From positions 3,782,001-3,846,000 of the forward strand of contig NZ_CP036278.1 in NCBI RefSeq assembly GCF_007748035.1: 64,000 nucleotides of DNA, in the 5' to 3' direction. The notes below the pieces were generated by a model, which saw only the letters and a program-made list of their open reading frames with translations, was not told where the DNA came from and searched no databases. This DNA comes from Aeoliella mucimassa. Its GTDB lineage: Bacteria; Planctomycetota; Planctomycetia; Pirellulales; Lacipirellulaceae. Below, in pieces: positions 4,346 to 56,796 of the stretch (the stretch's first letter is position 1; each line of letters begins with the position of its first letter). Both the position numbers and the translations under genes were made by a program.

Positions 4346-4395
4346 ATCTCAATACCAGTTAGACCCAGTTGGTACTACTTGTTTATATGCGTTTA

Positions 4396-7342: not shown

Positions 7343-7375
7343 ACAAATCTGAAGACTAAGTCTTTCCAAGCCTGG

Positions 7376-8311: not shown

Positions 8312-8331
8312 AGGAAATCGACGATATAGAG

Positions 8332-9147
8332 TTAGTTGTGAACGACTGACTTCTTGGAGCACTGGTAACGCTCCAGGTAGCTGGCAGCAACCTGCTGCAA
8401 TCGGTCATACATTCTCAAAGCGGTTTTTGCCGTAGGATCGGTAATTGCCTGTTGCTTCTTCGACCTTCGCACGGAACCATCGACTTGATCAAAATTGAGT
8501 TCCCCCTCAACCAAGTCTTCCAGTGCATCACGCCCAGTTCCGTTGATCACCGACTCCGAGTCGAGTAGGAGAAAACGGGGATCGTTTTGAGCCCATTTCA
8601 GCAGACGCGCATAACTTCGGACCCACATTTTCAACAGTTTATTCCGTTCGAACGGAAGGGCTGGCGAGTAAGTCTCGGATGCGTCTCGCAACATGCTGTC
8701 AACAGTTCGCAAAGGACAGCGAAAAACAGTGATAAACCGCACGCTATCAGGCAAGTAAGGCATCCAACTTGGCAACGTTGCGTTGAATCGGGGATCCTTC
8801 AAACAGAATGGAGTTCGAGAGACCAAGCTGCGCACAAAATCATCATCCTCCTCGTCCAATTCCAGCGGCCTGGCAGACAGAGGTAGCACGGCCCAAAACG
8901 ATCTCCAATCCTCATGCGTTTTGGGGTAAACAAACTTCCGCAAGTGAAAGCAGCCTGGTGGATACAGCAACTTGAATATCAACTTATTATTAAGTGTATT
9001 GATCCTTCTGCATTCATAGTAGCCGTAAGGATTGGCCGGAGTCGCTTCGATCAACTCATCACCAAAACTGGCTCCAGTATCCCTGAAACACGCAGTAACC
9101 ATACTGGTACCACTGCGGCCTGTTCCCAGCACAATAACGTTATGCAT
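8332..9147 (-). CDS. Sulfotransferase family protein
   Basis: A 271-residue protein whose N-terminus, VIVLGTGRSGTSMV, is the PAPS 5'-phosphosulfate-binding loop of sulfotransferases. FITVFRCPLRTVDSML near the middle matches the 3'-phosphate-binding strand and helix (R-x-P-x-x-x-x-x-S type). A recognisable Shine-Dalgarno site (ACAGGAG, eight bases before the ATG) supports this start. Placed between transporter and glycosyltransferase genes, it probably sulfates a sugar of the exopolysaccharide or its precursor in the cytoplasm. PAPS synthesis genes are not in this window. Confidence 0.85.
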   Translation of the reverse strand: MHNVIVLGTGRSGTSMVTACFRDTGASFGDELIEATPANPYGYYECRRINTLNNKLIFKLLYPPGCFHLRKFVYPKTHEDWRSFWAVLPLSARPLELDEEDDDFVRSLVSRTPFCLKDPRFNATLPSWMPYLPDSVRFITVFRCPLRTVDSMLRDASETYSPALPFERNKLLKMWVRSYARLLKWAQNDPRFLLLDSESVINGTGRDALEDLVEGELNFDQVDGSVRRSKKQQAITDPTAKTALRMYDRLQQVAASYLERYQCSKKSVVHN

Positions 9148-9259
9148 GGTTAGACTCCTGTAGGCAAAGCAGTGGGGTACGATACTCAGTAATCATGGCT
9201 CGGTAGGGTTGCAGTCCTGCTGGAATACTACGGTTCGAATCAGTCAGTGGTCTCCCACA

Positions 9260-11727: not shown

Positions 11728-11747
11728 TTAAGAGCTCCCAGTTCGTA

Positions 11748-12707
11748 TTAAGCAATATCAGCAAAACGTCGTTCCGTTTTGCGGAAGTAAAGCATGCCGA
11801 ACACCAGGAGCGTTACCGTCGTCAGTAACGACATCCCCAGCATTCCCCAAGGAACTTCTGTACCAAAGATCGCGCTACGAAATCCTTCGATGATTCCCGC
11901 CATCGGATTCAATGCGTAGAGCAGTCGATACTTCTCTGGAACAATGGTCGTGGGATACACCACCGGACTCAGAAACTGCCAGGCTTGCACCATAAATGGC
12001 ACTACAAACCTAAAGTCGCGATAGGTAACCGTGAGTGCCGACAACGTGTAGGCGATACCCAACGAGGCACACCACACCATCAACACCAGAAATGGCAGGA
12101 GCACAATGGTTGGCGAAATAGCCACGCCATAGATTGCCATGAGCGTGAGAAAAACACAAAACGACAGTCCCATATCCACCAACGATCCACTTACCGTAGC
12201 TGTTGGAACAAACAGCCTGGGAAAGTAAATTTTGGTGAGCAACTGTTGCTGACTCACCAGCGACATACCACCTTGGGAGATACCGGTTGAGAAAAACAAC
12301 CAAGGCATCATCCCCGCGTACACATAAACTGGGTAAGCAGCAATGAGCGACTCAGGTAGCGTATTCTTAAGTCCCGCAAAGTTACCGAAGATGATCGTAA
12401 ATACGGTAACACTGAAGATGGGAACCAGAATCGCCCAAGCCACCCCTAGGACGGTTTGTTTGTAGCGAACCTTAACATCCCGCCATACTAGGAAGAACAA
12501 CAGTTCGCGATAACGAATCAGCTCACGAAAATCGACCGGCACCCAACCACTCTTCGGTTCGATGACAAGCGGCTCACCATCGTAAGCGGCGTCGGCATCA
12601 ATCGGAGCAATCGTTGAGTCGGCTTGGCCGGACGAGCCATCCAGTTCTGGGGGACTGGACGGAGTATCTCGCAACAGCTCTGGCTCGGCAGCAAGGGAGT
12701 CAGACAT
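11748..12707 (-). CDS. wzm: ABC transporter permease, Wzm type (polysaccharide export)
   Basis: A 319-residue permease of the ABC-2 family. Residues 1-65 form an acidic, low-complexity N-terminal extension that ordinary Wzm lacks. Then come LIRYRELLFFLVWRDVKVRYKQ, shown here as RELLFFLVWRDVKVRYKQ, the typical amphipathic start, and TVLGVAWAILVP, followed by about six membrane helices and a C-terminal NPMAGIIEGFR box. It should form the membrane channel for export of the undecaprenyl-linked polysaccharide with the Wzt-type ATPase at 9260-10546. It is the first structural gene after the sigma-54-type activator, 68 bases downstream. Confidence 0.92.
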   Translation of the reverse strand: MSDSLAAEPELLRDTPSSPPELDGSSGQADSTIAPIDADAAYDGEPLVIEPKSGWVPVDFRELIRYRELLFFLVWRDVKVRYKQTVLGVAWAILVPIFSVTVFTIIFGNFAGLKNTLPESLIAAYPVYVYAGMMPWLFFSTGISQGGMSLVSQQQLLTKIYFPRLFVPTATVSGSLVDMGLSFCVFLTLMAIYGVAISPTIVLLPFLVLMVWCASLGIAYTLSALTVTYRDFRFVVPFMVQAWQFLSPVVYPTTIVPEKYRLLYALNPMAGIIEGFRSAIFGTEVPWGMLGMSLLTTVTLLVFGMLYFRKTERRFADIA

Positions 12708-12775
12708 ATATATTTGCAGGCGTAATTTTAAGGTGGGAATTAGTAAGGCGGGGCCTGTATTCGCTCAACCGCAGA

Positions 12776-14464
12776 TCACCTTGGTGATTTACGGCGTTTG
12801 CGAACATGAGGGATACCATACAACTTGATCTTGCGATACACGGTCGCCTGCCCAAGACCAAGTAACTGCGACGCGTCGACGACGTGCCCGTCAGTATGTT
12901 GAAGTGCTTCGATGATCGCGGCTCGTTCGCGTCGTTGAATCGGTGTTAACTCCGCTAACGCGATCGAAGTCTCTCGTTCACTGGCAATCGGCAATGGCTG
13001 CCCGCCGTTCGTCGCTTGCGAGTGGTAATTCCGCATCGGACTCGTCGCGCTGAGACCAAGTGGCGAGTGCACACTAGCACGGAAGCTGGGAGAGTGGAAC
13101 TCTGCCGGAATATCCATTGGCTCGACGATTTCGCCTTTGGCGAAAATGGCGATCCGTTCAATCGCATTTTCCAACTGGCGAACGTTGCCTGGCCAATCGA
13201 AGGCTTCGAGTACATCCAAGGCGTCCTGCGAAAAACCACCCACGGTACGGTTATGGTTCTCAACAGCACGCTTCAAAAACAATTCAGCAAGTTCGGCAAT
13301 ATCTTCCGGACGCTCTCGCAGCGGAGGCAAGTGAATTGGGACGACATTTAAACGGAAGAACAAATCTTGCCGCAGTCGCCCTTCATTGACGATCGATACA
13401 GGATCTCGGTTGGTTGCACCAATGATGCGAACGTTCACCGCTTCTTCTTGTTGTGAGCCAACTTTGCGCAGCTTGCCTTCCTGCAAGAAACGCAACAACT
13501 TGGGCTGGAGGGTCAGTTCCATCTCGCCAATTTCGTCGAGGAACAAAGTTCCCTTATCAGCAGCCTGACACCAACCCAACTGATTTTGCGTAGCGTGCGT
13601 AAACGAGCCTTTCAAATGGCCAAACAACAGGCTCTCAGCCAGGCCTTCGGGGATGGCCGACATATTCACTGGAATAAAAGGCGAATCATTGCGTGGGCTC
13701 AATCGGTGAATCGCTTGAGCAACAAGTTCTTTGCCGGTTCCGCTCTCGCCCCAGATCATTACCGTGGCATTCGTGCTGGCAACCTCAGCCACCTGCCGGC
13801 GTACTGCCTGCATGGCTGGGCTTGTTCCTCTTAAGAACGACCGCAGATCTATCATTTCTTGCGAGCTATCTATCTGAGATGGCCCGTCGAACGAACTGCC
13901 TCGGCGACGCCCTGACATATAGGGAGAGTTTGGCTTTGCATGCCCATTCTCGCTATTGCCATTCTTGCCATTGATCGGCGAAGAATTGAGACCACGATCA
14001 ATCCGAACGGTCGACTCACCTTCGTGAACCAGGGAGCGACTATTCGTCTTTCGGAATGTACTCACTTCCGAAAGCAAACTCTCCATATCTTTGGAGCTGA
14101 AATCGCCGTGATACACGTCGAAGGCACCCGCCTTCAACGCCTTTACCACATCGGAAACATTGTTATCCGTGGAATTCAACCACCCCGCCACGGGGACTCG
14201 TTGCTTCCAATCGGAGATCAGACTATTCGAATGGGCGTCGGTTAAAGAGAGTATCACCGCGTCGTAGTGACCTAACTCCCGACCAACAGCCTCAGCATCC
14301 CCATTAATCTTAGGAATGCTTACGCACTCACCATGCACTTCGTGCAGCAACGCCTTAAGCGACCCAGCCGCCGATTGATTATCGACAGCCAAAAGCACTC
14401 TTGGAGGACGCTCATGGACACAATTTGGGCGCGGATTCTCAGCAGTTTTTTCAATAGTAGACAT
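12776..14464 (-). CDS. Sigma-54-type transcriptional activator with degenerate receiver domain
   Basis: A 562-residue protein started at the ATG at 14464, because GGAAGAAG lies just upstream; a longer frame begins at 14491. Residues about 20-140 resemble a receiver domain but lack the clear DD pair and phospho-aspartate. A linker of about 60 residues follows, then the AAA+ domain with GESGTGKE (Walker A), GTLFLDEIGE (Walker B) and RQDLFFRLNV (arginine finger). The sigma-54 contact loop reads GSFTHA instead of the usual GAFTGA. The C-terminus is a Fis-type helix-turn-helix (DASQLLGLGQATVYRKI). It probably regulates the exopolysaccharide operon and perhaps the divergent rhamnose genes. Confidence 0.86.
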   Translation of the reverse strand: MSTIEKTAENPRPNCVHERPPRVLLAVDNQSAAGSLKALLHEVHGECVSIPKINGDAEAVGRELGHYDAVILSLTDAHSNSLISDWKQRVPVAGWLNSTDNNVSDVVKALKAGAFDVYHGDFSSKDMESLLSEVSTFRKTNSRSLVHEGESTVRIDRGLNSSPINGKNGNSENGHAKPNSPYMSGRRRGSSFDGPSQIDSSQEMIDLRSFLRGTSPAMQAVRRQVAEVASTNATVMIWGESGTGKELVAQAIHRLSPRNDSPFIPVNMSAIPEGLAESLLFGHLKGSFTHATQNQLGWCQAADKGTLFLDEIGEMELTLQPKLLRFLQEGKLRKVGSQQEEAVNVRIIGATNRDPVSIVNEGRLRQDLFFRLNVVPIHLPPLRERPEDIAELAELFLKRAVENHNRTVGGFSQDALDVLEAFDWPGNVRQLENAIERIAIFAKGEIVEPMDIPAEFHSPSFRASVHSPLGLSATSPMRNYHSQATNGGQPLPIASERETSIALAELTPIQRRERAAIIEALQHTDGHVVDASQLLGLGQATVYRKIKLYGIPHVRKRRKSPR

Positions 14465-43669: not shown

Positions 43670-44767
43670 TCAGGCAAGTTCACGAAACAGGGTGTTAGCA
43701 AGAATCACCCGCGAAGCGAGCAATCCCAACGCGACCAGCACCAAGGGGGGACACGCCCACGAACCGAGGGATCCGCCTTGGATAGCAAGCTCGCGATAGT
43801 CGACAAAATGCCGCTCTTCGATTTTGGTTTTCTCCAGCTGATCGATTTCGTGATAGATCTCGGTTAGCGACTCGGTATCGGTAGCACGAAAGTACTTACC
43901 ACCGGTGACTTCGGCTATTTGCTTGAGCGTGTCCTCGTCGATGTTTACTTCGGCCCACTCAATCTGTTGCCGCCCGGTGAAGGGATTCATCACTGGCACT
44001 GGGGCCCGCCCGCGGGTGCCGACTCCGATGGTGTAGATCTTGATGTCTTTCTTCTTCGCCAGTTCGGCCGCTTGTTGCGGATCGACCTCACCAGCATTGT
44101 TTTCACCATCGGTGAGCAGCAACACCACTTTGCTCTTCACCTTTTCGTCCTGCCGGTCGTCGAGCGAGGCGAGCTTCTCTACAGCCAGGCTAACCGCGTC
44201 GCCCAAGGCGGTGCCATCTTCCGATCGCTGGCTGACGATCTCCTGGCGAATCAACTGGTTGGTTACAAACGGATGATCAAGCGTCGGCGGAGTAATTGCG
44301 TCGGCATAGCCCGCGAATGTGATTAGCCCCACCAGGTCGCTCACTCTGCCGGACAGCGAATCGGATTCGTCGGACTCGTCCGCATCGGTGTCGCCAACGA
44401 TGAATCGACTGGCAACATTCTTGATGGCGGTCAAACGGTCGACTTGTTTGCCATCGATCTTAAAATCGAGCGCCCGCATACTTCCCGAACGATCCACAAC
44501 CATCTCAATGGCAATGCCATCGGCATCGATCACCGTCTGCTCCCGACCCTCGCGGGGACGCGCTAAGGCGACAATCGCCACAGCAATAGCGGCCAAGGTC
44601 AGCACCGCAGGAAGCCAGGCGAGACGCTGCCGCCAGGTGGGGCGTAGATGCTGCAGCGATTCGGTAGAGCTAAACGGTACCGCCGTATTCCGCCCCCCCG
44701 CACACAACCGCCAGGCGATCAGGGGAAGCAGGAGTAGTAGCAGGAGCACCCAGGGATCATGAAACAT
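43670..44767 (-). CDS. BatA-like VWA domain membrane protein
   Basis: A 365-residue protein starting at 44767, overlapping the previous gene by 11 bases. It opens with a membrane helix (LLLLLLLPLIAW), has a second near residues 50-70, then a VWA domain whose MIDAS is VVDRSGSM, with LITFAGYADAITPPT and LLTDGENNAGE. A long acidic insert (DTDADESDESDS) lies in the domain. A last helix is near ACPPLVLVALGLLASRVI. BatA and BatB proteins are thought to act with MoxR ATPases in metal insertion or envelope stress; the partner MoxR is at the head of this operon. Confidence 0.9.
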   Translation of the reverse strand: MFHDPWVLLLLLLLPLIAWRLCAGGRNTAVPFSSTESLQHLRPTWRQRLAWLPAVLTLAAIAVAIVALARPREGREQTVIDADGIAIEMVVDRSGSMRALDFKIDGKQVDRLTAIKNVASRFIVGDTDADESDESDSLSGRVSDLVGLITFAGYADAITPPTLDHPFVTNQLIRQEIVSQRSEDGTALGDAVSLAVEKLASLDDRQDEKVKSKVVLLLTDGENNAGEVDPQQAAELAKKKDIKIYTIGVGTRGRAPVPVMNPFTGRQQIEWAEVNIDEDTLKQIAEVTGGKYFRATDTESLTEIYHEIDQLEKTKIEERHFVDYRELAIQGGSLGSWACPPLVLVALGLLASRVILANTLFRELA

Positions 44768-45758
44768 GCTGCCCTCCTGTTGGTTGTGCCTGCATTGGCT
44801 GCTCGCACTCGGCGATCAGCCCCCGGGCGTCGTCGAATGCTTGCTGCAGTGCGGGCAGTTCCACTTCACTACGGGCGAACTTTATGTTGTCGGCGATCGC
44901 CATGAGCGATTCGAGTCGCTGGGCCGGATGCTCTGGAAGCTCCATCGTCTGGGCCGCGATGCTCAAGAACTCAGGCGTCGTACGAGCACGAATTGGCAGA
45001 GCGTACTGCAACTCGAAGTACTGCCGAACGATTTCGACCAGCTCGTTGTACACGAGAGCACCATCAACCGACGGCCCCGCCAGCAGTTGCTGCAGGTCCT
45101 CGATTTCCAAGAGAGCCCACTTAGCTGGCGAGAGAGTCTTCTTTCGCATCAATAGCACCGTTGTTGCCAGCACCGCGACACCAACTACGCCGGCCCCAAC
45201 AATCCACCACACGATCTGTCCGCCTGAGTTCGTCGATGGAATCTCGATATCGACAGGGTCTTTCACATCGTGCAACTTCGTGGGATCCGTTTGGTCTTCC
45301 AGCAAGCTGGCGATAGTCACCACCAACGGCTCGCTTTGCATAGCGTAAAACGTCTCGGGACGAGCAGTCGTAGCAACTTGAACATCGAGCGACGGAATCG
45401 TTTGCTCGCCGGTTCTGAGCGATTCCAATAGCGCAGTTAGCTTCCATAGCCTTTGGTTCGAACCATCGCCGAGGGGAATATCCTCTACGGAAGTTTGACT
45501 CAGCACGTCGAGTTCGCCGAGTTTGTCCGGCAAGCGGGGCAAGCGGACTTGCGTTCCACTGGGAGCAGTGACTTCGAGCACGAACTCCATCGGATCGGCC
45601 ACCAGAGCGGTGGACTTATCGACTTGCGCATGGATGGCAACGTCGTCCAGCGAGCCAGCTGCTTGAGAAGCAGCCTGAGCGGGACCCGCATTCCAACTGG
45701 CAGCAGCAGCTAGCAAGACGAGGCAAAGGACAGCGATGCTTTGTCGAGAAGTTTTCAC
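44757..45758 (-). CDS. Bat-operon membrane protein of unknown role (DUF4381-like)
   Basis: About 333 residues from the GTG at 45758, chosen because it makes a GTGA overlap with the DUF58 stop and follows GGGAGA; a longer frame to 45911 lacks family character. A signal peptide (AVLCLVLLAAAASWNAGPAQAA) is followed by an immunoglobulin-like region (DKSTALVADPMEFVLEVTAPSG), a membrane helix (VWWIVGAGVVGVAVLATTVLL) and a helical cytoplasmic part rich in charged residues. Proteins in this position of Bat operons often carry DUF4381. It probably links the membrane-anchored VWA proteins to the MoxR/DUF58 pair, but no function is shown. Confidence 0.75.
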   Translation of the reverse strand: MKTSRQSIAVLCLVLLAAAASWNAGPAQAASQAAGSLDDVAIHAQVDKSTALVADPMEFVLEVTAPSGTQVRLPRLPDKLGELDVLSQTSVEDIPLGDGSNQRLWKLTALLESLRTGEQTIPSLDVQVATTARPETFYAMQSEPLVVTIASLLEDQTDPTKLHDVKDPVDIEIPSTNSGGQIVWWIVGAGVVGVAVLATTVLLMRKKTLSPAKWALLEIEDLQQLLAGPSVDGALVYNELVEIVRQYFELQYALPIRARTTPEFLSIAAQTMELPEHPAQRLESLMAIADNIKFARSEVELPALQQAFDDARGLIAECEQPMQAQPTGGQHVS

Positions 45759-46630
45759 GATCGATTCTCCCTTCGATGGAAGAAGCGACGCAGTGGCTCG
45801 ACAAAATCTTCGCCGGTGTAAACATGGATCGGATCGAGGTTCAGCCGGCGGAATAGAGTATCTCGCTCCTGCATTCGGCGTTCGGCGAACTCCCGATACG
45901 CTTCTCGACACGCCCGACTATTGGTATCGAGGGTGACCACTTTGCCAGTCTCCGCATCGCGAAGTCGCACCAGGCCGACCTTCGGCATTTCGAGTTCCCG
46001 CTGATCGGCGACCACTACGGGTATGATGTCGTGCTTGCTACGAGCAACCTTCAGCGCCTTTTCGTACCCGGTATCCTGGAAGTCGCTCACCACAAACACC
46101 ACCGTGCGGCGCGACATCGTGCGATTCAAATGCTCTAACGCAGTGGACAGACTGGTACCAGTTCCCATCGGAGTGCAATACAACAGCTCGCGAATAAGTC
46201 GCAACACATGACGCGTCCCCTTGCGGGGCGGTACAAACTTTTCGATGCCATCGGTAAAAAGCGTCAGGCCAACTCGGTCGTTACCCTTGATCGCCGAGAA
46301 AGCCAGGGTCGCGCTCAATTCGGTCACTTGCTCACGTTTGGTTTGCCAGTTCGACCCCATGCCTTGCGAACCACTCTGATCCACCAGCAGCATGACCGCC
46401 ATCTCGCGTTCTTCGCGAAACAACTTCACGTAGGGATGACCGGTACGGGCAGTGACGTTCCAATCGATCGAGCGGATGTCGTCGCCGAATTGATACGGTC
46501 GGACCTCTTCGAACTCGATACCACTCCCCCGAAAGGCAGAGTCCCACTGCCCAGCCAGCAATTCATCGACGATGTGAGTCGTATGAATCTGGATTCGTCG
46601 GATCTTCTTGATGATTTCGCGCGGTAACAT
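45755..46630 (-). CDS. DUF58 protein
   Basis: A 291-residue DUF58 protein. Hallmarks are GIEFEEVRPYQFGDDIRSIDWNVTAR, given here as EEVRPYQFGDDIRSIDWN, then KLFREEREMAVMLLVDQSGS, whose DQSGS is a VWA-like MIDAS, and VVFVVSDFQD. DUF58 proteins nearly always sit next to MoxR ATPases, as here (60 bases apart), and are thought to be their partners in folding or activating membrane or metal proteins. No membrane helix is seen. The GTGA overlap with the next gene supports translational coupling. Confidence 0.93.
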   Translation of the reverse strand: MLPREIIKKIRRIQIHTTHIVDELLAGQWDSAFRGSGIEFEEVRPYQFGDDIRSIDWNVTARTGHPYVKLFREEREMAVMLLVDQSGSQGMGSNWQTKREQVTELSATLAFSAIKGNDRVGLTLFTDGIEKFVPPRKGTRHVLRLIRELLYCTPMGTGTSLSTALEHLNRTMSRRTVVFVVSDFQDTGYEKALKVARSKHDIIPVVVADQRELEMPKVGLVRLRDAETGKVVTLDTNSRACREAYREFAERRMQERDTLFRRLNLDPIHVYTGEDFVEPLRRFFHRRENRS

Positions 46631-46690
46631 TCGTTGTTAGCTTGGTTGAGTGATGGAGAACCCCTTCCCTTCGCTTGGATCTTGTCGGCA

Positions 46691-47701
46691 TCACGGCACC
46701 GGGATCGCATTGAGAATGGTCTGCACAATGTCGTCTGCCGATTTTTCCTCGGCTTCGGCCTCGTAGGTCAAGATCACTCGATGGCGAAGCACGTCGAGGG
46801 CGATTTCCTTCACGTCGGAAGGCAACACATGCCCCCGACCATGCAAAAACGCATTGGCCTTGGCCGCCAGCGTGAGGTTGATCGTCGCCCGCGGCGACGC
46901 CCCGTAATGAATGAACTCGTCGAGTGATAAACCATATGACTTTGGCTCGCGCGTGGCGATCACCAGGTCGACGATATACTCCTGAATCTTGCGATCAACA
47001 TAGATTTGGTCAACCAGCGCCCGCGCTGCCAAGATATCGGCCGGGGTGGCGACCGCCTGGGTGGCAATCTTCGGGCGGGTCGAGGCCATCCGCTCCAGAA
47101 TCGCCAGTTCCTGATCGCGATTCGGATACCCAACGACTACCTTGAGCATGAAGCGATCCATCTGGGCTTCGGGCAGTGGGTAGGTTCCTTCTTGCTCTAC
47201 CGGGTTCTGCGTGGCCATCACTAGGAAGGGTTCGTCGAGCAGATACGTTTCGCTGCCGATGGTGACCTGCCGCTCCTGCATGGCTTCGAGGAGTGCACTC
47301 TGCACCTTGGCTGGCGCGCGGTTAATCTCGTCGGCCAGGATGATGTTCGAAAAGATCGGGCCTTTCTGCACCACGAACTGCTGATCTTGCGGGCGGTAGA
47401 TCAAAGTGCCGATCAAGTCGGCCGGTAGCAAGTCGGGAGTGAACTGCAAACGCTGGAAGCCAGTCTGCACGCCTTTCGCCAGGCACGACACAGCGGTTGT
47501 CTTTGCCAGCCCCGGTACCCCTTCAATCAACAAGTGCCCGTTCGCAAGCAATCCAACCAACATGCGGTGAATCAACACCTCCTGCCCGACGATTGTATTA
47601 CCGACCTCAGCAATCAGCTGGCGGAACGGCTCGCTCTGGGCCTGAATGTTTTGCGAGAGTGCTTCGATGGACTCGTAGGTCACTTGATCGGCGGAAGTCA
47701 T
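46691..47701 (-). CDS. MoxR-family AAA+ ATPase
   Basis: A 336-residue AAA+ ATPase. Walker A is GVPGLAKTT, Walker B ILADEINRAPAKVQSALLEAM, with the characteristic DEINR; QNPVEQEGTYPLPEAQMDRFML, cited as NPVEQEGTYPLPEAQ, is the MoxR sensor region. The winged C-terminal part contains GASPRATINL. It heads the Bat operon with the DUF58, membrane and VWA genes downstream, and likely remodels or activates a target in the cytoplasm or at the membrane. The promoter should lie in the 728-base gap upstream. Confidence 0.95.
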   Translation of the reverse strand: MTSADQVTYESIEALSQNIQAQSEPFRQLIAEVGNTIVGQEVLIHRMLVGLLANGHLLIEGVPGLAKTTAVSCLAKGVQTGFQRLQFTPDLLPADLIGTLIYRPQDQQFVVQKGPIFSNIILADEINRAPAKVQSALLEAMQERQVTIGSETYLLDEPFLVMATQNPVEQEGTYPLPEAQMDRFMLKVVVGYPNRDQELAILERMASTRPKIATQAVATPADILAARALVDQIYVDRKIQEYIVDLVIATREPKSYGLSLDEFIHYGASPRATINLTLAAKANAFLHGRGHVLPSDVKEIALDVLRHRVILTYEAEAEEKSADDIVQTILNAIPVP

Positions 47702-48429: not shown

Positions 48430-49098
48430 GTGCAAATAGAGGAGCATCCAGCAATTTTCCAGTTCTTCGAGTACTGCCTGGCCTGGCCGGTGATGCCGGC
48501 TTCGACCCTGATGGCATTGATCTTGATTTACGGCCTAATCGCCTTGCTTGGGGCCGCGGACCTCGATTTGTTTGAATTCGACGTGGATGTCGACGTAGAC
48601 GTCGATGGCCATGCGGGTTCGGCCACCAGCGTGGGATTAGTCGTCCTGAAATTCTTGAATTTGGGCGATGTTCCAATCATTATATGGCTGGCGTGTTTTG
48701 GACTATTTTGGTGGTCCTTGTCCTTAATTCTGTGGGTGTTCTTCGACGGTCAGCCGGAAGATCTCACGTTCTGGGGCGGGGCGATCCTGGTATTTCGCAA
48801 TGCCGGCATCTCGCTACTAGGGGCTAAGGGACTTACTGAACCTCTGCGTGAGATGTTCGACGAAACCGAACAATACACTCCCCAGAAACTGATCGGTCGA
48901 CTCTGTGAAGTCTCCACTTACGAAGTCACCGACCAAGGGGGACAGGCACGCATCAAGACCGATGCCGCCCCGCTACTTATCGATGTACGAACAGAAGACG
49001 ACCCCCTTCACAAAGGCGACATCGCTACGGTCGTAGCCTACGATGCCGCAACCAAGACTTACCAGATCAAGCAACCACCTACTGAGATTATCCCATGA
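48430..49098 (+). CDS. YqiJ-like OB-fold inner-membrane protein
   Basis: About 222 residues from the GTG at 48430; a TTG at 48415 and an ATG at 48493 are alternatives, and no ribosome-binding site decides. Two membrane segments (ASTLMALILIYGLIALLGA and IIIWLACFGLFWWSLSLILWV) flank an acidic stretch of alternating D and V residues. The C-terminal part (QKLIGRLCEVSTYEVTDQGGQARIK, VRTEDDPLHKGDIATVVAYD, TYQIKQPP) is the OB-fold of YqiJ/NfeD-type proteins. In other bacteria YqiJ partners the flotillin YqiK. Its stop overlaps the flotillin start (ATGA), which supports the same pairing here. Confidence 0.85.
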   Translation: MQIEEHPAIFQFFEYCLAWPVMPASTLMALILIYGLIALLGAADLDLFEFDVDVDVDVDGHAGSATSVGLVVLKFLNLGDVPIIIWLACFGLFWWSLSLILWVFFDGQPEDLTFWGGAILVFRNAGISLLGAKGLTEPLREMFDETEQYTPQKLIGRLCEVSTYEVTDQGGQARIKTDAAPLLIDVRTEDDPLHKGDIATVVAYDAATKTYQIKQPPTEIIP

Positions 49099-51206
49099 TG
49101 TTACTCGCCGACACAAGCAATGCACTAATAGTAGGCATTGGTATAGGTTTCATTGCCCTCGTGGCAGTCATCATTATTGGGCTCGCCTTATCGCGGTTCT
49201 ATCGCAAGGTTGCCCCTGAAGAAGCGCTCGTGAGGTCGGGTGGTGGTCAGTTGGCAGTTGCCACCGGGCAAGGCATGTGGGTCTTCCCCATCGTGCACCG
49301 TGTCGATCGCATGGACCTTACCCTTAAGCGCATCGAGATTGCTCGACAAGGGAACGACGGCCTCATTTGCCGCGACAACATCCGCGCCGACATCAAGGTC
49401 GCCTTCTTCGTGAGGGTCGACAAAGAAGACGAGAAAATCAAGGAAGTCGCTCAGTCGATCGGTTGCACTCGCGCATCGGACGAACTCACGCTAACCGACC
49501 TTTTCGATGCAAAGTTCTCCGAAGCTCTGAAGACCGTAGGCAAGCAGTTCGACTTCGTCGACTTATACGACAAACGAGAGCAGTTCAAAGCGGAAATCAT
49601 CAAAGTCATTGGCATCGATCTCAATGGCTACCGACTCGACGATGCAGCGATCGACTATCTCGAGCAAACTTCGGTCGAATTGCTCGATCCGAACAATATC
49701 CTCGACGCCGAAGGTATCAAGAAGATTACCGACCTCACGGCCAAAGAGCACGTTCGATCAAACGACATCACGCGGGAAAAAGAAAAGGTCATCAAAAAGC
49801 AAGATGTCGAAGCCCGCGAAGTGATACTCAATCTGGAACGTCAGCAGATTGAAGCGGAAGAAAAAATGAAGCGCGAGTCGACCGAAATCCGCGCTCGCGA
49901 ACAGGCCGAAGCCCGCAAGGTGCAGGAACAAGAGCGATTGAAAGCGGAAACCGCTCGCATTCAAACCGAGGAAGAACTTCGCGTCGCCGAAGAAAACAAA
50001 GATCGCCAGATCATAGTCGCTGAGAAAAACAAGCAACGCACCGAAGCGGTGGAGGTCGAACGTGTCGAACGCGACCGCATGCTCGAAGTCACCGAACGCG
50101 ATCGTCTGGTTGGCATCGCCGAAGTGGAAAAAGACAAGGCCATCGAAGTCGAGAATCGCAGTATCCAGGAAGTGATTCGCGAGCGCGTGATGGTGGAACG
50201 TGCGGTGGTCGAAGAGCAAGAGAAGATCAAAGATACCCACGAATTCGCCGCTGCCGAGCGTTTAAAGAAGGTCACCGTGACCAAGGCCGAAATGACCGCC
50301 GAACAAAACTTGGTGATCGAGGTCAAGGCCGCCGAGGCGACCAAACAAGCGGCCTCGTTGAAGGCCGAGCAGGTGGTGATCGAAGCGGATGCTCAACGCA
50401 ATGCTGCCGAACGCAAGACGCAGGCCATGAAGATGCTGGCCGAAGGTCGTACCGCCGAGGAAGCGGCCGAAGGTCTCGCCAAGGCGCACGTGCAGATCGC
50501 CAATGCGGATGCCATCGAGAAGACCGGTACCGCCGAAGCCACGGTGATCGAGAAGAAAGCCATGGCCGAAGCTTCCGGCGTCGGTGCCATGGCCGAAGCG
50601 AAGGAGAAGGATGGTACCGCCGAGGCGAACGTGATGAAGCTGAAGTTCAGCAGCGAAGCCAACGGCATTACCGAAAAGGCCAAGGCCATGAAGTTGTTCG
50701 ACGGCGTCGGCCGCGAGCACGAAGAGTTCAAGCTACGCCTGAACAAAGACAAGGACATCGAGATCGCTGCCATCCAGGCGCAGCAAGAAATTGCCGAAGC
50801 CCAATCGACACTTGTCGGCGAAGCCTTGAAGAGCGCCCGCATCGATATCGTCGGCGGCGAGAGCGAGTTCTTCGACAAGATCGTCGATTCGGTCAAGGGT
50901 GGTAAAGCGGTCGATCGCTTTATCCACAACAGCGAAGTGCTGACCGACGTGAAGAACACGTTCTTTAATGGCAACTCCGAATACTTCAAGGAAAAGACGC
51001 AGCAGTTAGTCGATCAATTCAACTTAAGCCCCGACGACGTGAAGGATCTGTCGATCTCGGCACTGATTTTGAAGATGCTTGGAATGACCGATGCGGACGA
51101 GACACGCAGCGAACTCAATCGCTTGCTCGATACGGTTCATCAACTCGGTGTGTCGGACAAACGACTTGCCGCGTTGGGCATCAATCAGGCAAAAGCGAAA
51201 CAGTAG
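49095..51206 (+). CDS. Flotillin-like SPFH protein (YqiK type), extended
   Basis: A 703-residue flotillin. After one N-terminal helix (ALIVGIGIGFIALVAVIIIGLALS) the SPFH/band-7 domain reads PEEALVRSGGGQLAVATGQGMW, given here as EEALVRSGGGQLA, DNIRADIKVAFFVRV and DAKFSEALKTV. From about residue 210 to 560 there is an unbroken charged coiled coil rich in AEA repeats (KAMAEASGVGAMAEAKEK). A folded C-terminal part follows (DRFIHNSEVL, KDLSISALIL). E. coli YqiK is about 550 residues, so this one is longer. It should form membrane microdomain scaffolds. The giant ATPase gene follows 58 bases later. Confidence 0.92.
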   Translation: MMLLADTSNALIVGIGIGFIALVAVIIIGLALSRFYRKVAPEEALVRSGGGQLAVATGQGMWVFPIVHRVDRMDLTLKRIEIARQGNDGLICRDNIRADIKVAFFVRVDKEDEKIKEVAQSIGCTRASDELTLTDLFDAKFSEALKTVGKQFDFVDLYDKREQFKAEIIKVIGIDLNGYRLDDAAIDYLEQTSVELLDPNNILDAEGIKKITDLTAKEHVRSNDITREKEKVIKKQDVEAREVILNLERQQIEAEEKMKRESTEIRAREQAEARKVQEQERLKAETARIQTEEELRVAEENKDRQIIVAEKNKQRTEAVEVERVERDRMLEVTERDRLVGIAEVEKDKAIEVENRSIQEVIRERVMVERAVVEEQEKIKDTHEFAAAERLKKVTVTKAEMTAEQNLVIEVKAAEATKQAASLKAEQVVIEADAQRNAAERKTQAMKMLAEGRTAEEAAEGLAKAHVQIANADAIEKTGTAEATVIEKKAMAEASGVGAMAEAKEKDGTAEANVMKLKFSSEANGITEKAKAMKLFDGVGREHEEFKLRLNKDKDIEIAAIQAQQEIAEAQSTLVGEALKSARIDIVGGESEFFDKIVDSVKGGKAVDRFIHNSEVLTDVKNTFFNGNSEYFKEKTQQLVDQFNLSPDDVKDLSISALILKMLGMTDADETRSELNRLLDTVHQLGVSDKRLAALGINQAKAKQ

Positions 51207-51264
51207 CGTCAACTCGCAAAGTTGTCTCTAGCCTCGATCCTTTCAGCACTGCGCGTTCAATCCA

Positions 51265-54200
51265 ATGGCTTCGTCCGATCCGTCCAAAGCTGCGCCGACA
51301 AGTGACACGCCTGAGGAGGTGCAACTTGAAAGTGGTGCCTACGAGATACTCCGTAATCGCCTGCGCGAGCATGCCAAGGAGTTACGCAAGCGTCTCGACC
51401 AGCTAAACGACGCCCGCAAAGATGTGTTTGGCTCCATTGCTACCACTTTGGTAGCGACGGAGCGCATTACCACTCAGAACAACTGTATTCCCCGCGACCT
51501 GGTGTCGATCGGAGATCAGTTTCTGTTTGGCTACAACGTACACATGGGGCTCAAAAGCGAAACGGTTCTGGCCGATGTCTTCTCAGCCTACGAGTTTCGC
51601 GACCACTCTTTCCGCGAAGGGTCGCTCGATCTACTGAAAGACGAGCGATTCGAGCGGGAGTTCAGCGAACTCTACAAGTACTACAAAGACGCCCGCTTTG
51701 CGAAGTTCTTCGTCAAAACACCGCACCTTTATATGGTGTTCCGCGTCGGCACAAATGCTTCCGACATCAAGGCCTTCAAGTGGTTGCAGTCCGACGGTCA
51801 GCTGACCTATGTCGACAACCGCAGCGACCATGAAGTGGCTTTTCCACCGCAGCACGAATTCAAGTGGATCCGCACTACCCGCGATATGCACTCAAGTGGT
51901 GTCCACCCGCATATCTCGATCGAAGATCGCGTGTTTGTCGAAACCGTCGGCGGCGACCTGACGGTCAAGATCGAGGACAACACCGATTCGGGTGCAGGTA
52001 TCTATGCCGAGCCGGTCGACAATCTCGACCAGACACTCGACGATGCCCTGATCTATTACGCGATCATCGGCAACATCATCTTACTCAAGATCCGCCCTTA
52101 TCAGGAAGAAGCCTTTCGCTACATCGTCTACAACGAGAAGATCCAGGAAGCCCGGCGCATCGATGCCATCGAGCACGCGTGCGTGCTGCTGCCAGACGGG
52201 CATGGGCTGATTTTCTCGAATGGCTATTACCTGCAAAATGGCGAGCACAAGACGTTTGAGCATGACACCCGCGACATGCTGTTCGAACGCCGGGTGGCGG
52301 CGCCGAATGGCGAAGACTATCTTTACGTCTTCTACAACCGTTTAACCGGCGTTTACGTATTGTTGCGTTACAACGTCATCGAGCAACGTGTCGACACACC
52401 GCTCATTTGCAATGGTAGCTCGCTGTTCGAAGCGGGCGAACTGGTCTGCTTTCGCGGTACGGAAAAACCCGAGAAGCACCACGCGCTGCAAGTTTGGCAG
52501 ACACCCTACGTGGGAATCGACTACGTTCCGCCGACGCAAACCGATTCGCAGCTCTTCAAGATCGGCAATCGTGAAATCGTCCGCGGCATGGCCGAATGCA
52601 ACGCAGTGCTATCGCTTATCGATAAGGAACAAGCCTACGCAGAGCTCTATATCGATCTGGCGAAGCAAACCGGCGACATCCTCGACTCCTATTTCTGGAT
52701 CGACCATGCCGAGACGTTCACACTAAGCGAACCTCTCAAGGAGATCCAGACCGCCGCCGGGGCGGCCATCGACGAGTTCGAAAAGGTTCGTCAGGTCCGC
52801 CAGGCGACCGCCAAGCAAACCGCTAGCACCCGCGACCGGGCGAACGAGATCCTTTCCACGGTGGGTCATGGGCGGTTTGAGACGATCGATGAGTTTGTCT
52901 CCGCACTCGGCGATCTTCGCGCCGTACGTGGTGCGACCATCTCGCTGCGCGACCTCCGCTACGCCGATCTGACGTTGATCGATTCGCTGGAGAAAGAGAT
53001 TGTCGAGCAGTCGGATCGGCTTGCCGAGCGTTGCGTTGAGTTTCTGCTCGGCGACTCAGCACTTGCCCCCTACCAAACACGGATTGCGGAGCAGACGGAG
53101 CAAATCGCTCAGCTCGATCGTGTCGCCGACGCCAAGACACTGCTCGCCGAGATCGACCAAGGGGCCCGCGAACTCGAGATGCTGATCGAGATCGTCAGCA
53201 ACCTGAAAATCGACGATGCGACCCATCGCACCGCGATTATCGACAGCATTTCCAGCATCTTCGGCACCATCAACGGCGCTCGCGCCTCGATCAAGTCGCG
53301 AATCCAGGAACTAATGTCGGTAGAGGGAGCTGCCGAGTTTGGTTCGCAGATGAAGCTGCTCGATCAGAGCGTAGTGAGCTACCTCGACCTGTGCGATTCT
53401 CCGGCCAAGTGTGAAGAGTTGCTAACGAAGATCCTGGTTCAGATCGAAGAACTTGAAGGCCGCTTTGCGGAGTTCGATGAGTTTGTCATCCAACTGAGCG
53501 ACAAACGCGATGAGATCTACAACGCGTTTGAATCTCGCAAGATGGCCCTGGTCGAGCAGCGCAACCGCCGGGCGAGCACGCTAGCGAGCGCGGCCGAACG
53601 CATTCTGCAAGGCATCCAGAACCGGGTGGAGCACTTCGACGAAGTCGACGAGATTCACTCGTACTTCGCCTCGGATCTGATGATTGAGAAGGTCCGCGAC
53701 CTGATCGCCCAACTCGAAGAGCTGGAAGATACGGTCAAGGTCGACGATATCCAAAGCCGCCTGAAAACGGTTAAAGAAGATGCGATTCGCCAGCTCAAGG
53801 ATCGCAAGGAACTATTTGTCGGCGGCGACAATTTGATTCGCCTGGGCAATCATCAATTCACGGTCAATGTGCAGACGCTTGATCTGACGACGGTGCTACG
53901 CGACGAGCAAATTACTTTGCACCTGACGGGTACGAACTTCTTCGAGCCACTCAAAGACCAGCAGCTGCTGGAATGCCGGGATGTGTGGACTCAGGAGGTG
54001 ATTTCGGAGAATCCCAAGGTCTACCGCGGCGAATTCCTCGCCCACGTGATGCTTGACCATCTGCTTCGTAACGACGACGAGCGGGCGGCCTTTCTGCACG
54101 CGACCGACGAAGAGCGGCTGAAGATCGTGCAGCAATTCATGGGCCCCAGGTATCAAGAGTCGTACGTCAAAGGCGTGACCGACAACGATTCGTCCGCCAT

Positions 54201-56796
54201 TTTGCATGAACTGCTGAAGATGCATCAGCAGATTGGCCTGCTCCGCTATCACACCCAAGCCAGGGCTTGCGCCCGCTTGTACTGGGACTACTTCATGGAC
54301 TCGGCGGAACGCAAGCTCATGGCCTCGCGTCTGCGGGGCGTGTCGTACATCGACGAGGTATTCCCTGGATCGAGACAGAATGTCAACTACATCCAAGATC
54401 TGACCGGCCAGCTTCAGGCATTTGTTGCGACCACCCGATTGTTTGAAGACTACCTGGTGGACGAGGCTGCCCGCTATCTGTTTGCCGAACGCACGCAACC
54501 GGTCGAAGGTCGCGTCGATACAAGTTTTGCAGTGAGTCGCATTGCTGCGGACGCGTGCGATCAGTTCCTGCGATTGCTTCGCCATCACAACTACGAGGTG
54601 CATTACAGCCGCAGCGTCGAATCGCTGGCAAAGTCGCCGTCTGCGCTGTTTACCCTGATTCGCGATTGGGTCGATGCCTTCCTCCCCACAAGCGAAGTTC
54701 CCACCGAGTATCGCGATGAAATTGCAGCGGTACTCATGAAGTACGATTCGTCCGCAACCAGCACTGTCGAGGGGCAATCGCTGGTCGAGGCCCATACGAT
54801 CGTGGATGGGCAGGTAACCGCGGACCTTTCGAACATGCTCGGGGCGCATCCGGTAATCAAGTCGGGCGGCTATCAGCTTCACTACAACCACTTCATGAAG
54901 AAGATGGGGCACTTCCGCCGCGACGTGGTGCCTCGCTACGAATCCTTTCAACATCGCAAAGCGGAGCTTGTCGAAGCGGCTCGCGTCGACATGCGACTCG
55001 ACGAGTTCAAACCTCGGGTGCTCACTTCATTTGTCCGCAACCGCTTGATCGATACAGTCTATCTGCCTCTGATCGGCGACAACCTCGCCAAACAGATTGG
55101 ATCGGCTGGCGAATCGAAACGCACCGACCGCATGGGCCTGCTGCTGCTGGTGTCGCCGCCTGGTTATGGTAAGACCACATTGATGGAATACCTGGCCAAT
55201 CGGCTTGGCATTATCTTCATGAAGATCAACGGCCCCGCGATTGGCCACCAGGTCACGTCGCTCGACCCCGCCGAAGCCCCGAACGCCGCTGCACGTGAGG
55301 AAGTGGAGAAGCTGAACCTGTCGCTCGAAATGGGCGACAACGTGATGATCTACCTCGACGACATCCAGCACTGCAACCCCGAGTTCCTGCAGCGGTTCAT
55401 TTCGCTCTGCGATGCTACCCGAAAGATCGAAGGTGTTTACAAAGGCCGCACGCGGACCTACGACCTTCGAGGTCGTAAGGTAGTTGTCGTGATGGCCGGA
55501 AACCCCTACACCGAAAGTGGGGAGCGATTCCGGATTCCCGACATGCTGTCGAATCGTGCCGACATCTACAATCTCGGAGAGATTATCGGCGATTCGGCCG
55601 AAGCCTTCGAAATGAGCTATATCGAGAACTGCCTTTCGAGCAATCCCACCCTCAGCAAGCTGGCGAGTCGCAGCCAGAAAGACATCTACTCGTTTATTAA
55701 AGTCGCCGAAACTGGCGAGCGTGATCAGGCCGACCTGGAGGGAAGTTACACCTCGGTAGAGTTCGATGAAATCGTCTCGACGATGAAGAAACTGCTGCGA
55801 GTCCGCGATGTGATTCTTGCTGTGAACCGGCAGTATGTCACCTCCGCAGCCCAGTCGGACGACTACCGCACCGAACCCCCATTCAAGCTGCAAGGTTCCT
55901 ATCGCAATATGAATCGCATTGCCGAGAAGGTAGTGCCGATCATGAATGATGCGGAGTTGCAGTCGCTCATTCTGTCGAGCTACGAGAACGACGCGCAAAC
56001 CCTCACCTCCGACACCGAGTCGAATCTGCTGAAGCTTCGCGAGCTACTTGGCATCCTCACCAAGGAAGAAACAGCTCGCTGGGAGAACATCAAACGTACG
56101 TTCCGCGAAAACTTGAAGATGAAGGGCATCGACAAGGACGACCAAGTCGGCCAGGTTGTAGTGCAGCTACGCTCGTTCAGCGACGGACTTAACGCGATCG
56201 AACGGGCGATGGCCGATGGAATCGACCGCTTTGCGGAACTTTCTGCTCGTGCAGTTCCGGAAAGCGAAAGCGATCTCAGCGAGCGTGAAAAGCACGAAGC
56301 GGAACAACTGCGAGCCGAAGAGATCGTCGATCGCTTGAGCCAACTCAGCTCGGGGATTACTGGCATCCACAAAACGATCGACTCGGGACTCCGCACGCTT
56401 TCGGAACTTGCCGACAACGACCGGGCAACCCCGGCACCGACGCCCGTCCCCTCCGAAGGGGCGATACCAGTTGCCGTAGCGGTGGAAGCCATGCACGAAC
56501 TGGCTAACGAACTGCGCAGCCTTACCACGAGCACGGTTCCAGTCGACCCCACGCGCAACACACGCGTGTCGGTAAGCCATCGCGTTCCTAAGTCGATTCT
56601 CGGGGTGATTGAGAGCCAGTTTGAGCTGATGAAAGACTCTATTGCTCCGCTACTTACCGTCACGGATCGTCAGTCTCAGACATTTGACGAGTTGAAAGCA
56701 ACGTTCCAGCAGTCGCTCCAACAAACAGCCGCGCTGATCACGGAACTCAAAGAGTCGCGTCAAAAGCATCCCAATCCACCAAGAGACGAGGAGTAG
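51265..56796 (+). CDS. Giant AAA+ ATPase (DUF3686-like, often called DNA repair ATPase)
   Basis: An 1843-residue protein starting at the ATG at 51265; no Shine-Dalgarno site is visible. Residues 1 to about 440 are beta-rich and look like a repetitive propeller-type region (FKWLQSDGQLTYVDNRS). Long coiled coils follow (about 500-850). A helical region and an AAA+ domain come next: SPPGYGKTT (Walker A, K about 1303), IYLDDIQH (Walker B, with D1366 in place of the usual E) and VVVMAGNPYTESGERF (sensor 1), then a MoxR-like lid. The last 200 residues are charged and coiled. From memory the family resembles DUF3686 plus AAA. A repair role is not shown. The layout suggests a membrane-linked remodelling machine working with the flotillin encoded just upstream. 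Confidence 0.82.
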   Translation: MASSDPSKAAPTSDTPEEVQLESGAYEILRNRLREHAKELRKRLDQLNDARKDVFGSIATTLVATERITTQNNCIPRDLVSIGDQFLFGYNVHMGLKSETVLADVFSAYEFRDHSFREGSLDLLKDERFEREFSELYKYYKDARFAKFFVKTPHLYMVFRVGTNASDIKAFKWLQSDGQLTYVDNRSDHEVAFPPQHEFKWIRTTRDMHSSGVHPHISIEDRVFVETVGGDLTVKIEDNTDSGAGIYAEPVDNLDQTLDDALIYYAIIGNIILLKIRPYQEEAFRYIVYNEKIQEARRIDAIEHACVLLPDGHGLIFSNGYYLQNGEHKTFEHDTRDMLFERRVAAPNGEDYLYVFYNRLTGVYVLLRYNVIEQRVDTPLICNGSSLFEAGELVCFRGTEKPEKHHALQVWQTPYVGIDYVPPTQTDSQLFKIGNREIVRGMAECNAVLSLIDKEQAYAELYIDLAKQTGDILDSYFWIDHAETFTLSEPLKEIQTAAGAAIDEFEKVRQVRQATAKQTASTRDRANEILSTVGHGRFETIDEFVSALGDLRAVRGATISLRDLRYADLTLIDSLEKEIVEQSDRLAERCVEFLLGDSALAPYQTRIAEQTEQIAQLDRVADAKTLLAEIDQGARELEMLIEIVSNLKIDDATHRTAIIDSISSIFGTINGARASIKSRIQELMSVEGAAEFGSQMKLLDQSVVSYLDLCDSPAKCEELLTKILVQIEELEGRFAEFDEFVIQLSDKRDEIYNAFESRKMALVEQRNRRASTLASAAERILQGIQNRVEHFDEVDEIHSYFASDLMIEKVRDLIAQLEELEDTVKVDDIQSRLKTVKEDAIRQLKDRKELFVGGDNLIRLGNHQFTVNVQTLDLTTVLRDEQITLHLTGTNFFEPLKDQQLLECRDVWTQEVISENPKVYRGEFLAHVMLDHLLRNDDERAAFLHATDEERLKIVQQFMGPRYQESYVKGVTDNDSSAILHELLKMHQQIGLLRYHTQARACARLYWDYFMDSAERKLMASRLRGVSYIDEVFPGSRQNVNYIQDLTGQLQAFVATTRLFEDYLVDEAARYLFAERTQPVEGRVDTSFAVSRIAADACDQFLRLLRHHNYEVHYSRSVESLAKSPSALFTLIRDWVDAFLPTSEVPTEYRDEIAAVLMKYDSSATSTVEGQSLVEAHTIVDGQVTADLSNMLGAHPVIKSGGYQLHYNHFMKKMGHFRRDVVPRYESFQHRKAELVEAARVDMRLDEFKPRVLTSFVRNRLIDTVYLPLIGDNLAKQIGSAGESKRTDRMGLLLLVSPPGYGKTTLMEYLANRLGIIFMKINGPAIGHQVTSLDPAEAPNAAAREEVEKLNLSLEMGDNVMIYLDDIQHCNPEFLQRFISLCDATRKIEGVYKGRTRTYDLRGRKVVVVMAGNPYTESGERFRIPDMLSNRADIYNLGEIIGDSAEAFEMSYIENCLSSNPTLSKLASRSQKDIYSFIKVAETGERDQADLEGSYTSVEFDEIVSTMKKLLRVRDVILAVNRQYVTSAAQSDDYRTEPPFKLQGSYRNMNRIAEKVVPIMNDAELQSLILSSYENDAQTLTSDTESNLLKLRELLGILTKEETARWENIKRTFRENLKMKGIDKDDQVGQVVVQLRSFSDGLNAIERAMADGIDRFAELSARAVPESESDLSEREKHEAEQLRAEEIVDRLSQLSSGITGIHKTIDSGLRTLSELADNDRATPAPTPVPSEGAIPVAVAVEAMHELANELRSLTTSTVPVDPTRNTRVSVSHRVPKSILGVIESQFELMKDSIAPLLTVTDRQSQTFDELKATFQQSLQQTAALITELKESRQKHPNPPRDEE

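What the first reader, a model, noticed from the sequence alone, without database searches (positions are those of the whole stretch)
48430..56796. YqiJ, flotillin and an 1843-residue AAA+ ATPase form one tight gene set
The YqiJ-like and flotillin genes overlap by four bases (ATGA), and the giant ATPase begins 58 bases later on the same strand. Flotillins and YqiJ are known to make membrane microdomains; an enormous AAA+ partner with a propeller-like N-terminus and long coiled coils is not part of the usual description. I infer a membrane-anchored remodelling or defence/stress machine. The common label of DNA repair ATPase has no support in the sequence beyond family naming.
Basis: partly seen in the sequence, partly recalled or inferred. 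Interest (0 to 1): 0.72.

Follow-up and report, generated by a model that had tools for sequence, protein, structure and literature searches.

The report
Flotillin paired with giant AAA+ ATPase
Three neighbouring genes encode a small membrane protein, a membrane-scaffold protein (flotillin) and a very large ATP-driven protein that occur together in distant bacteria; the gene set has been described before, but what it does is unknown.

Summary
In detail: a YqiJ-like gene, a flotillin-like gene (49095-51206) and an 1843-residue AAA+ ATPase (51265-56796) in line, with a 4-base overlap and a 58-base gap. In a 393-genome sample of the window's phylum, 42 have the ATPase and 42 of 42 have all three genes in this order. 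The ATPase goes with one long flotillin subfamily: 52 of 52 ATPase genomes in two phyla; of the 15 next-closest flotillins, all in genomes without ATPase, none matches the last 80 or so model positions, one being cut by its contig end. In 4 of 4 genomes with an isolated ATPase, that flotillin lies elsewhere. No other neighbour family is common. The set is not new: PMC11237479 describes it, with PspA and abbreviated. The window's genome has no PspA match, so PspA is not needed here. Best reading: a flotillin-scaffolded, membrane-tethered AAA+ remodeller for envelope stress; docking and client are inferred. Defence and DNA repair found no support.

The parts
48430..49098 (+). YqiJ-like membrane protein (YuaF/YqiJ type); alternative start TTG 48415; acidic D-x-D repeat between the hydrophobic segments
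   Evidence: Pfam YqiJ_N 1.8e-6; 26 of 45 aligned relatives hit YqiJ_N and 3 of 45 hit NfeD; profile hits YuaF 2k14 weakly, E 0.082; hydrophobic segments about 20-50 and 75-106 (numbered from 48415)
49095..51206 (+). flotillin-like SPFH protein, 703 aa: one N-terminal transmembrane segment (10-28), then a conserved SPFH-like region (about 80-215) and a long charged and alanine-rich region
   Evidence: ORF; 6 of 51 relatives hit Band_7; profile hits QmcA 8z5g, E 0.0011, over profile positions 363-448; hydropathy; conservation
50772..51203 (+). flotillin C-terminal part (residues 560-703), seen only in flotillins of ATPase-bearing genomes; candidate ATPase docking part (inferred). Best conserved up to about residue 625
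51265..56796 (+). giant AAA+ ATPase, 1843 aa (DUF3686 + DUF7902 + AAA), no transmembrane segment found
   Evidence: Pfam DUF3686 7.6e-191, DUF7902 1.7e-28, AAA 1.5e-6; hydropathy
51445..52500 (+). predicted beta-propeller (residues 61-412), inside DUF3686
   Evidence: AlphaFold pLDDT 85.8 for residues 1-880, 26 strands in this stretch; best PDB fold matches include many propeller proteins, clathrin heavy chain first (which entries are propellers is recalled)
52549..53814 (+). long helical, coiled-coil-like stalk (residues 429-850), containing DUF7902
55027..56064 (+). AAA+ module (residues about 1255-1600): Walker A 1297-1305, Walker B 1362-1369, sensor-1 Asn 1413, arginine-finger candidate 1431, sensor-2 candidate Arg 1547 (motif roles recalled)
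   Evidence: G1300, K1303, T1304, D1365, D1366, N1413, R1431 and R1547 are invariant in the 69 rows and the 78 rows; positions; best fold matches CbbQ, RuvB and NorQ

Best explanation
The three genes encode a membrane-tethered AAA+ remodelling machine. The YqiJ-like protein and a dedicated long flotillin build an oligomeric scaffold on the cytoplasmic face of the inner membrane. The soluble giant ATPase is recruited to it, most likely through the flotillin's C-terminal part. Its AAA+ ring, of MoxR-like fold, uses ATP to remodel client complexes at the membrane, with the beta-propeller and helical stalk choosing or holding the client. The likely setting is envelope stress. Shown here: co-occurrence without exception in the samples, operon order, an ATPase-specific flotillin subfamily, invariant catalytic residues, predicted folds, and absence of PspA from this genome. 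Inferred: physical docking, ring assembly, client and the stress.
For: Linkage: 42 of 42 genomes of one phylum; 57 of the 61 genome-contig loci with at least 4 kb upstream (80 of 415 relatives were kept); 11 of 11 fetched plasmid-collection loci for flotillin and 10 of 11 for YqiJ. Pairing beyond linkage: the 4 loci of those 61 without flotillin lie in genomes that encode the same flotillin on another contig, 4 of 4. Subfamily: the flotillin model (691 positions) is matched to position 673 or beyond in 42 of 42 and 685 or beyond in 10 of 10 ATPase genomes of two phyla; the next-closest flotillins, 4 and 11, all without ATPase, have strong matches ending at 551 or earlier. The 12 plasmid-collection records with the ATPase are the same 12 whose flotillin match covers at least 80% of the query, of 315 with any flotillin match. 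Catalysis: key residues invariant. Topology: flotillin one N-terminal transmembrane segment, ATPase none. Envelope-stress context: CesT/Tir-like and PspA genes upstream in 10 of 80 loci and in Hymenobacter, and a YjfI-PspA operon on pQBR103.
Against: No experiment and no complex prediction was run; co-occurrence does not prove contact. The separating part is not sharp: in G342, which lacks the ATPase, a weak second piece (18.6 bits) reaches model position 602 and shifted tail profiles match partly (E 0.0011 and 0.091); G528 is cut by its contig end. On plasmid-collection records the flotillin match ends at residues 607-658 in 8 of the 12, and a search with residues 561-703 alone misses 4 of the 12 and covers under 60% in 4 more, though those of these flotillins that I fetched are 643-731 aa long. 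Distance correlations (ATPase-flotillin 0.92) do not control for relatedness. One locus has no detectable YqiJ (L130). The profile match of the AAA part to the window's own MoxR is weak (probability 4.6%, E 0.0089). The unlinked cases are draft genomes, where foreign contigs are possible.
Confidence: 0.5

Rival explanations
1. A PspA (ESCRT-III-like) membrane-repair module: the ATPase takes apart PspA polymers as Vps4 does with ESCRT-III, and flotillin places PspA; the window holds a shortened copy working with a PspA elsewhere, as PMC11237479 suggests for abbreviated operons.
For: CesT/Tir-like and PspA genes lie upstream in 10 of 80 genome-contig loci plus Hymenobacter (blastp from two anchors, so a lower bound); YjfI-PspA on pQBR103; PspA within 4 kb of the set in 2 of 42 genomes, G103 and G020 (coordinates); PspA over its cut-off is commoner in ATPase genomes, 26 of 42 against 59 of 351; proposal in PMC11237479 (passages).
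Against: The window's genome has no PspA_IM30 match, all 18 candidates scored, while the same search finds it in 9 of 14 control genomes. 16 of 42 ATPase genomes have none over the cut-off; 3 of those 16 have sub-cut-off matches, and one search scored at most 7 candidates a genome, so these absences are less firm. The enrichment is confounded by lineage: 16 of the 26 lie in one family in which 28 genomes without the ATPase also have PspA. The AAA fold ranks Vps4 44th.
Confidence: 0.2
2. Co-regulated but not physically joined: flotillin and ATPase serve the same stress response without contact.
For: No contact has been tested; other ORFs fit between flotillin and ATPase in several loci (20 of 111 gaps above 450 bases).
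Against: The ATPase goes with one flotillin subfamily and not with the other flotillins of the same phyla, and that flotillin is present even when the genes are apart.
Confidence: 0.17
3. An anti-phage or other conflict system.
For: Patchy: 2 of 43 genomes of the window's family; present on some plasmids.
Against: PADLOC: one weak hit in the P-loop region only; 0 of 50,697 phage records; no relative in a pattern-based viral scan; no other common neighbour in 121 loci (neighbours not scanned against PADLOC); strongly conserved sequence (36-66% identity to the window over residues 1-880 in 68 homologues).
Confidence: 0.08
4. A DNA-repair ATPase, as the public label says.
For: Pfam's description of DUF3686 ('ATPase involved in DNA repair') and RuvB similarity of the P-loop region.
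Against: RuvB_N is below its curated cut-off and, DUF3686 itself apart, no family described as DNA repair passed its cut-off; the common neighbours are the two membrane-protein genes.
Confidence: 0.03

Closest known systems
CesT/Tir-PspA / YqiJ / band-7-flotillin / AAA+ neighbourhood and its abbreviated form (PMC11237479, mSystems 2024, Ravi et al., author name recalled; passages read)
   Same: [quoted passage not shown] the abbreviated form lacks PspA in the operon
   Different: The paper suggests a PspA encoded elsewhere; here the genome has no match. The tie between the ATPase and one long flotillin subfamily is not in the passages I read.
SPFH2 / NfeD2 operons yuaF-yuaG and yqiJ-yqiK (PMC2636767, passages read)
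   Same: Two-gene core: NfeD-like membrane protein followed by flotillin
   Different: The word ATPase does not occur in that text. This flotillin is a distinct, longer subfamily; the window's genome also has an ordinary 566-aa flotillin
SPFH-AAA+ pairs such as HflKC-FtsH (interaction with FtsH stated in PMC2636767; the rest recalled)
   Same: AAA+ machine tied to an SPFH scaffold in the membrane
   Different: No protease family hit and no transmembrane segment found in this ATPase; AAA+ module of MoxR-like fold
MoxR-type AAA+ ATPases, CbbQ and NorQ (fold matches)
   Same: AAA+ fold; arginine and sensor-2 layout by eye
   Different: Here embedded in an 1843-residue protein with propeller and stalk, and no VWA gene is common beside it

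Membership tests
Abbreviated YqiJ-flotillin-AAA+ operon (PMC11237479) | YqiJ/YuaF-type membrane protein | tested here: met
   YqiJ_N 1.8e-6; weak profile match to YuaF, E 0.082
[quoted passage not shown]
   One TM segment; Band_7 in 6 of 51 relatives, not in the window protein itself
Abbreviated YqiJ-flotillin-AAA+ operon (PMC11237479) | AAA+ ATPase with beta-propeller and coiled coil | tested here: met
   AAA family; predicted folds
PspA/ESCRT-III envelope-stress system | PspA (PF04012) in the operon or the genome | tested here: not met
   0 matches in the window's genome; 9 of 14 control genomes positive
SPFH / flotillin superfamily | Band_7 domain in the window protein | tested here: inconclusive
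   No Pfam hit for the window protein; relatives up to 3.1e-14
Active AAA+ ATPases | Walker A, Walker B, sensor 1, arginine finger and sensor 2 residues conserved | tested here: met
   Invariant in 69 rows; motif roles recalled; activity itself not testable here
MoxR-type AAA+ | Closest solved folds are MoxR types | tested here: inconclusive
   CbbQ ranks first and NorQ recurs (target TM up to 0.62), but RuvB ranks 2nd and 3rd and a RuvB fragment also reaches 0.62; profile comparison to the window's MoxR weak
MoxR-type AAA+ | VWA partner encoded with it | tested here: not met
   Only the three genes are common; the MoxR-VWA operon next door is kept without the set in 3 of 3 relatives looked at
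Anti-phage defence system | Match to a defence model for the three proteins | tested here: not met
   One weak P-loop hit in PADLOC
SPFH-AAA+ complex (HflKC-FtsH type) | Physical complex of flotillin and ATPase | not testable with these tools
   No complex prediction or biochemistry available

The most novel reading that the evidence does not exclude
The ATPase and the long flotillin form one dedicated, PspA-independent SPFH-AAA+ machine that spreads between phyla as a self-contained unit: a non-proteolytic counterpart of HflKC-FtsH, in which the flotillin C-terminal part is the docking site for a propeller-bearing MoxR-like ATPase.
Probability: 0.35. Interest if true: 0.65.

Novelty: new member of a known kind. 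Interest (0 to 1): 0.45.

Why it matters
What bacterial flotillins do is, to my knowledge (recalled), still open. A flotillin subfamily that in the samples searched here appears only with one particular ATPase, and the reverse, gives a concrete partner and a short region (residues 560-703) to test. It would also separate an SPFH-AAA+ machine from PspA, with which it has been discussed so far.

Tried and rejected
Rejected: part of the neighbouring MoxR-DUF58-VWA operon (kept in 3 of 3 relatives looked at, without the set). Rejected: fusion of the ATPase to a further gene (the two very long frames run through masked sequence). Rejected: a phage-borne unit. Rejected: a base-composition island; GC is 0.54-0.57 in the set and 0.53-0.59 around it. 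The promoter scan found 3 sites against 4.1 in shuffles; 17 terminator-like sites exceed the 9.4 of shuffles but lie inside the genes. A single-sequence PDB search with the flotillin gave nothing at E 0.01. In one search my blastp step missed the ATPase of L119; the profile search found it with both partners.

What the counts leave out: one search kept the best 80 of 415 relatives; 19 of the 80 have under 4 kb upstream and are not in the 57 of 61 (8 of these 19 show no flotillin before the contig ends). One of the 12 plasmid-collection records (H4) was not fetched. The 111 flotillin rows behind the tail profile were filtered to 600-760 aa, so that part is not independent; rest on whole-genome searches with a profile built from ATPase-linked flotillins. 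In one search at most 7 candidates a genome were scored. Several plasmid-collection records are 1.7-11.9 Mb and may be chromosomes or second chromosomes. Structure models were read from the tool's summaries only; blades were not counted in coordinates. Among the fold matches are also non-propellers (dyneins, nuclear-pore parts), and all TM-scores there are low.
Full report
Check of the observation. The window holds the three genes as described. The ATPase has DUF3686 at residues 39-477, DUF7902 at 599-682 and an AAA domain at 1293-1372. The small protein hits YqiJ_N; the flotillin-like protein hits no SPFH model itself, but 6 of 51 aligned relatives do.

Is it more than one genome's accident? 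In a sample of 393 genomes of the window's phylum, 42 have the ATPase. All 42 have YqiJ and flotillin upstream on the same strand in this order (40 loci; the window; G327, cut by its contig end inside the ATPase). From genome contigs, 415 relatives were found and the best 80 kept; by record title they include Planctomycetota, Bacteroidota, Verrucomicrobiales, Desulfobacteraceae, Calditrichia and Cloacimonetes. Of the 61 with at least 4 kb upstream, 57 have both partners. Twelve plasmid-collection records carry the ATPase, in Proteus, Streptomyces, Deinococcus, Hymenobacter, Nonomuraea, Pseudomonas, Halomonas, Photobacterium and Vibrio; I fetched 11, of which 11 have flotillin and 10 YqiJ. Six of the 12 records are 169-562 kb, among them pQBR103; the other six are 1.7 Mb or more and may be chromosomes. 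Clustering all neighbours in 121 loci gave three families found in most (118, 95 and 84 loci), namely these three genes; the next cluster is in 16.

Pairing beyond linkage. The four loci of the 61 without flotillin nearby (L039, L057, L058, L080) lie in genomes that do encode the same flotillin on another contig, 4 of 4; these are draft genomes. A profile of this flotillin (691 positions) found 139 of 393 genomes at E 0.001, but only 46 with more than 150 bits. Of these, 42 are exactly the ATPase genomes, matched to position 673 or beyond. The other four (G008, G009, G049, G342) have a YqiJ-flotillin pair and no ATPase; their flotillin genes are not cut by contig ends, and their strong matches end at 551, 467, 312 and 322. 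Against a sharp border, G342 has a further weak piece (18.6 bits) to position 602. A second phylum, centred on a genome titled Bacteroidia, gave the same picture: 10 of 345 genomes have the ATPase; the same 10 have the full flotillin (to position 685 or beyond), beside the ATPase in 9 of 10 by coordinates; 11 others without ATPase have a partial match (209-329 bits) ending by position 515, one of which (G528) is cut by its contig end; the remaining 43 matching genomes are weak.

Among 72,556 plasmid-collection records, 315 match the window flotillin, 12 over at least 80% of its length, and these are the 12 with the ATPase. In 8 of the 12 the match ends at residues 607-658. A search with residues 561-703 alone finds 8 records, all among those 12; 4 of the 8 are partial and 4 of the 12 are missed. 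A profile of residues 560-690 gives no good match in the four ATPase-less flotillins (best E 0.091 in G342; 0.0011 for a profile of 535-625) and none in the genome's own ordinary flotillin. So the flotillin subfamily is ATPase-specific in these samples, while the exact border and role of its C-terminal part are less certain.

Anatomy of the ATPase. AlphaFold gives a confident model for residues 1-880 (pLDDT 85.8): a first helix, a strand-rich domain at 61-412 with 26 strands, then long helices to about 850. Foldseek's best PDB matches include many beta-propeller proteins, clathrin heavy chain first, along with some non-propellers; TM-scores are low. Residues 690-1843 (pLDDT 84.8) hold a small strand-rich piece, a helical region, the AAA+ module and a poorly predicted C-terminal tail. 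The AAA+ part resembles CbbQ, RuvB and NorQ most; Vps4 is 44th. Key motif residues are invariant in 69 rows and in 78 with the plasmid-collection rows, so an active enzyme is expected (inference).

PspA. PMC11237479 proposes that abbreviated operons might work with a PspA encoded elsewhere. The window's genome has no PspA_IM30 match, with all 18 candidates scored, while 9 of 14 control genomes have one. In the phylum sample 26 of 42 ATPase genomes have PspA over the cut-off and 16 do not (3 of these with weaker matches), against 59 of 351 genomes without the ATPase; that search scored at most 7 candidates a genome. The association is confounded by lineage: 16 of the 26 lie in one family. PspA lies upstream of the set in 10 of 80 genome-contig loci, all with titles of Bacteroidota (phylum recalled), and on two plasmids, and within 4 kb in 2 of the 42 genomes by coordinates. 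PspA thus looks like an optional partner.

Mobility. Only 2 of 43 genomes of the window's family have the ATPase, and 0 of its 3 congeners. In three relatives (G304, G400, G405) the MoxR operon that lies left of the set is present with other genes beside it over the 13-14 kb read. With the smaller plasmid records this suggests horizontal gain; loss in the relatives is not excluded and no insertion site was determined.

Mechanism. The best-supported reading is a flotillin-scaffolded, membrane-tethered AAA+ remodeller. Co-occurrence, order, subfamily match, motif conservation and transmembrane segments are shown; docking through the flotillin C-terminal part, ring formation, the client and the stress are inferred.

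What is known. PMC11237479 (mSystems 2024; Ravi et al., name recalled) describes the set with CesT/Tir-PspA and in abbreviated form (passages read). PMC2636767 (Hinderhofer et al. 2009, name recalled) describes NfeD/YqiJ-SPFH operons (passages). Searches for DUF3686 and for 'DNA repair ATPase' with flotillin found 0 papers. A search for flotillin, YqiJ and AAA+ ATPase listed one paper holding all three terms, PMC11237479; a search with defence terms listed nothing that looked relevant by title and start of abstract. These searches cover open-licence papers only, and I found no experimental study of the ATPase in them. Other papers: PMC8581546, PMC9239133, PMC10948618, PMC10936438 and PMC11153139 (passages); PMC10434171 (listing and start of abstract).

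Noticed in passing
L122 (pQBR103) 40-13244: Ten genes in a row: YjfI, PspA, rhomboid, DUF2491, DUF350, DUF1190, glutathionylspermidine-synthase-like, YqiJ-like, SPFH, ATPase. It joins two PspA operon types that PMC11237479 treats as separate groups.
   Followed up: partly
window 48550-48620: The YqiJ-like protein has a D-x-D-x-D acidic repeat between its hydrophobic segments that recurs in the consensus of 45 relatives; possibly a metal-binding loop (guess).
   Followed up: no
window 43670-47701 (-): A MoxR, DUF58, BatD-like, VWA-like operon is divergent from the set; kept in three relatives without the set.
   Followed up: partly
L168 4923-6623: The window's genome also encodes an ordinary 566-aa flotillin far away, without the long C-terminal part; a weak YqiJ profile match (E 5.4e-6) lies in the same locus.
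   Followed up: partly
L053, L055, L059-L061, L063-L065, L067-L069, L073, L079, L081: In these Bacteroidota-type loci various ORFs fit between flotillin and ATPase, alike only between near relatives as far as seen by eye; the gap looks like an insertion spot.
   Followed up: no
L113 (from G103:C89): Two PspA genes in tandem directly upstream of YqiJ and a third further downstream, in a genome of the window's phylum (coordinates).
   Followed up: no
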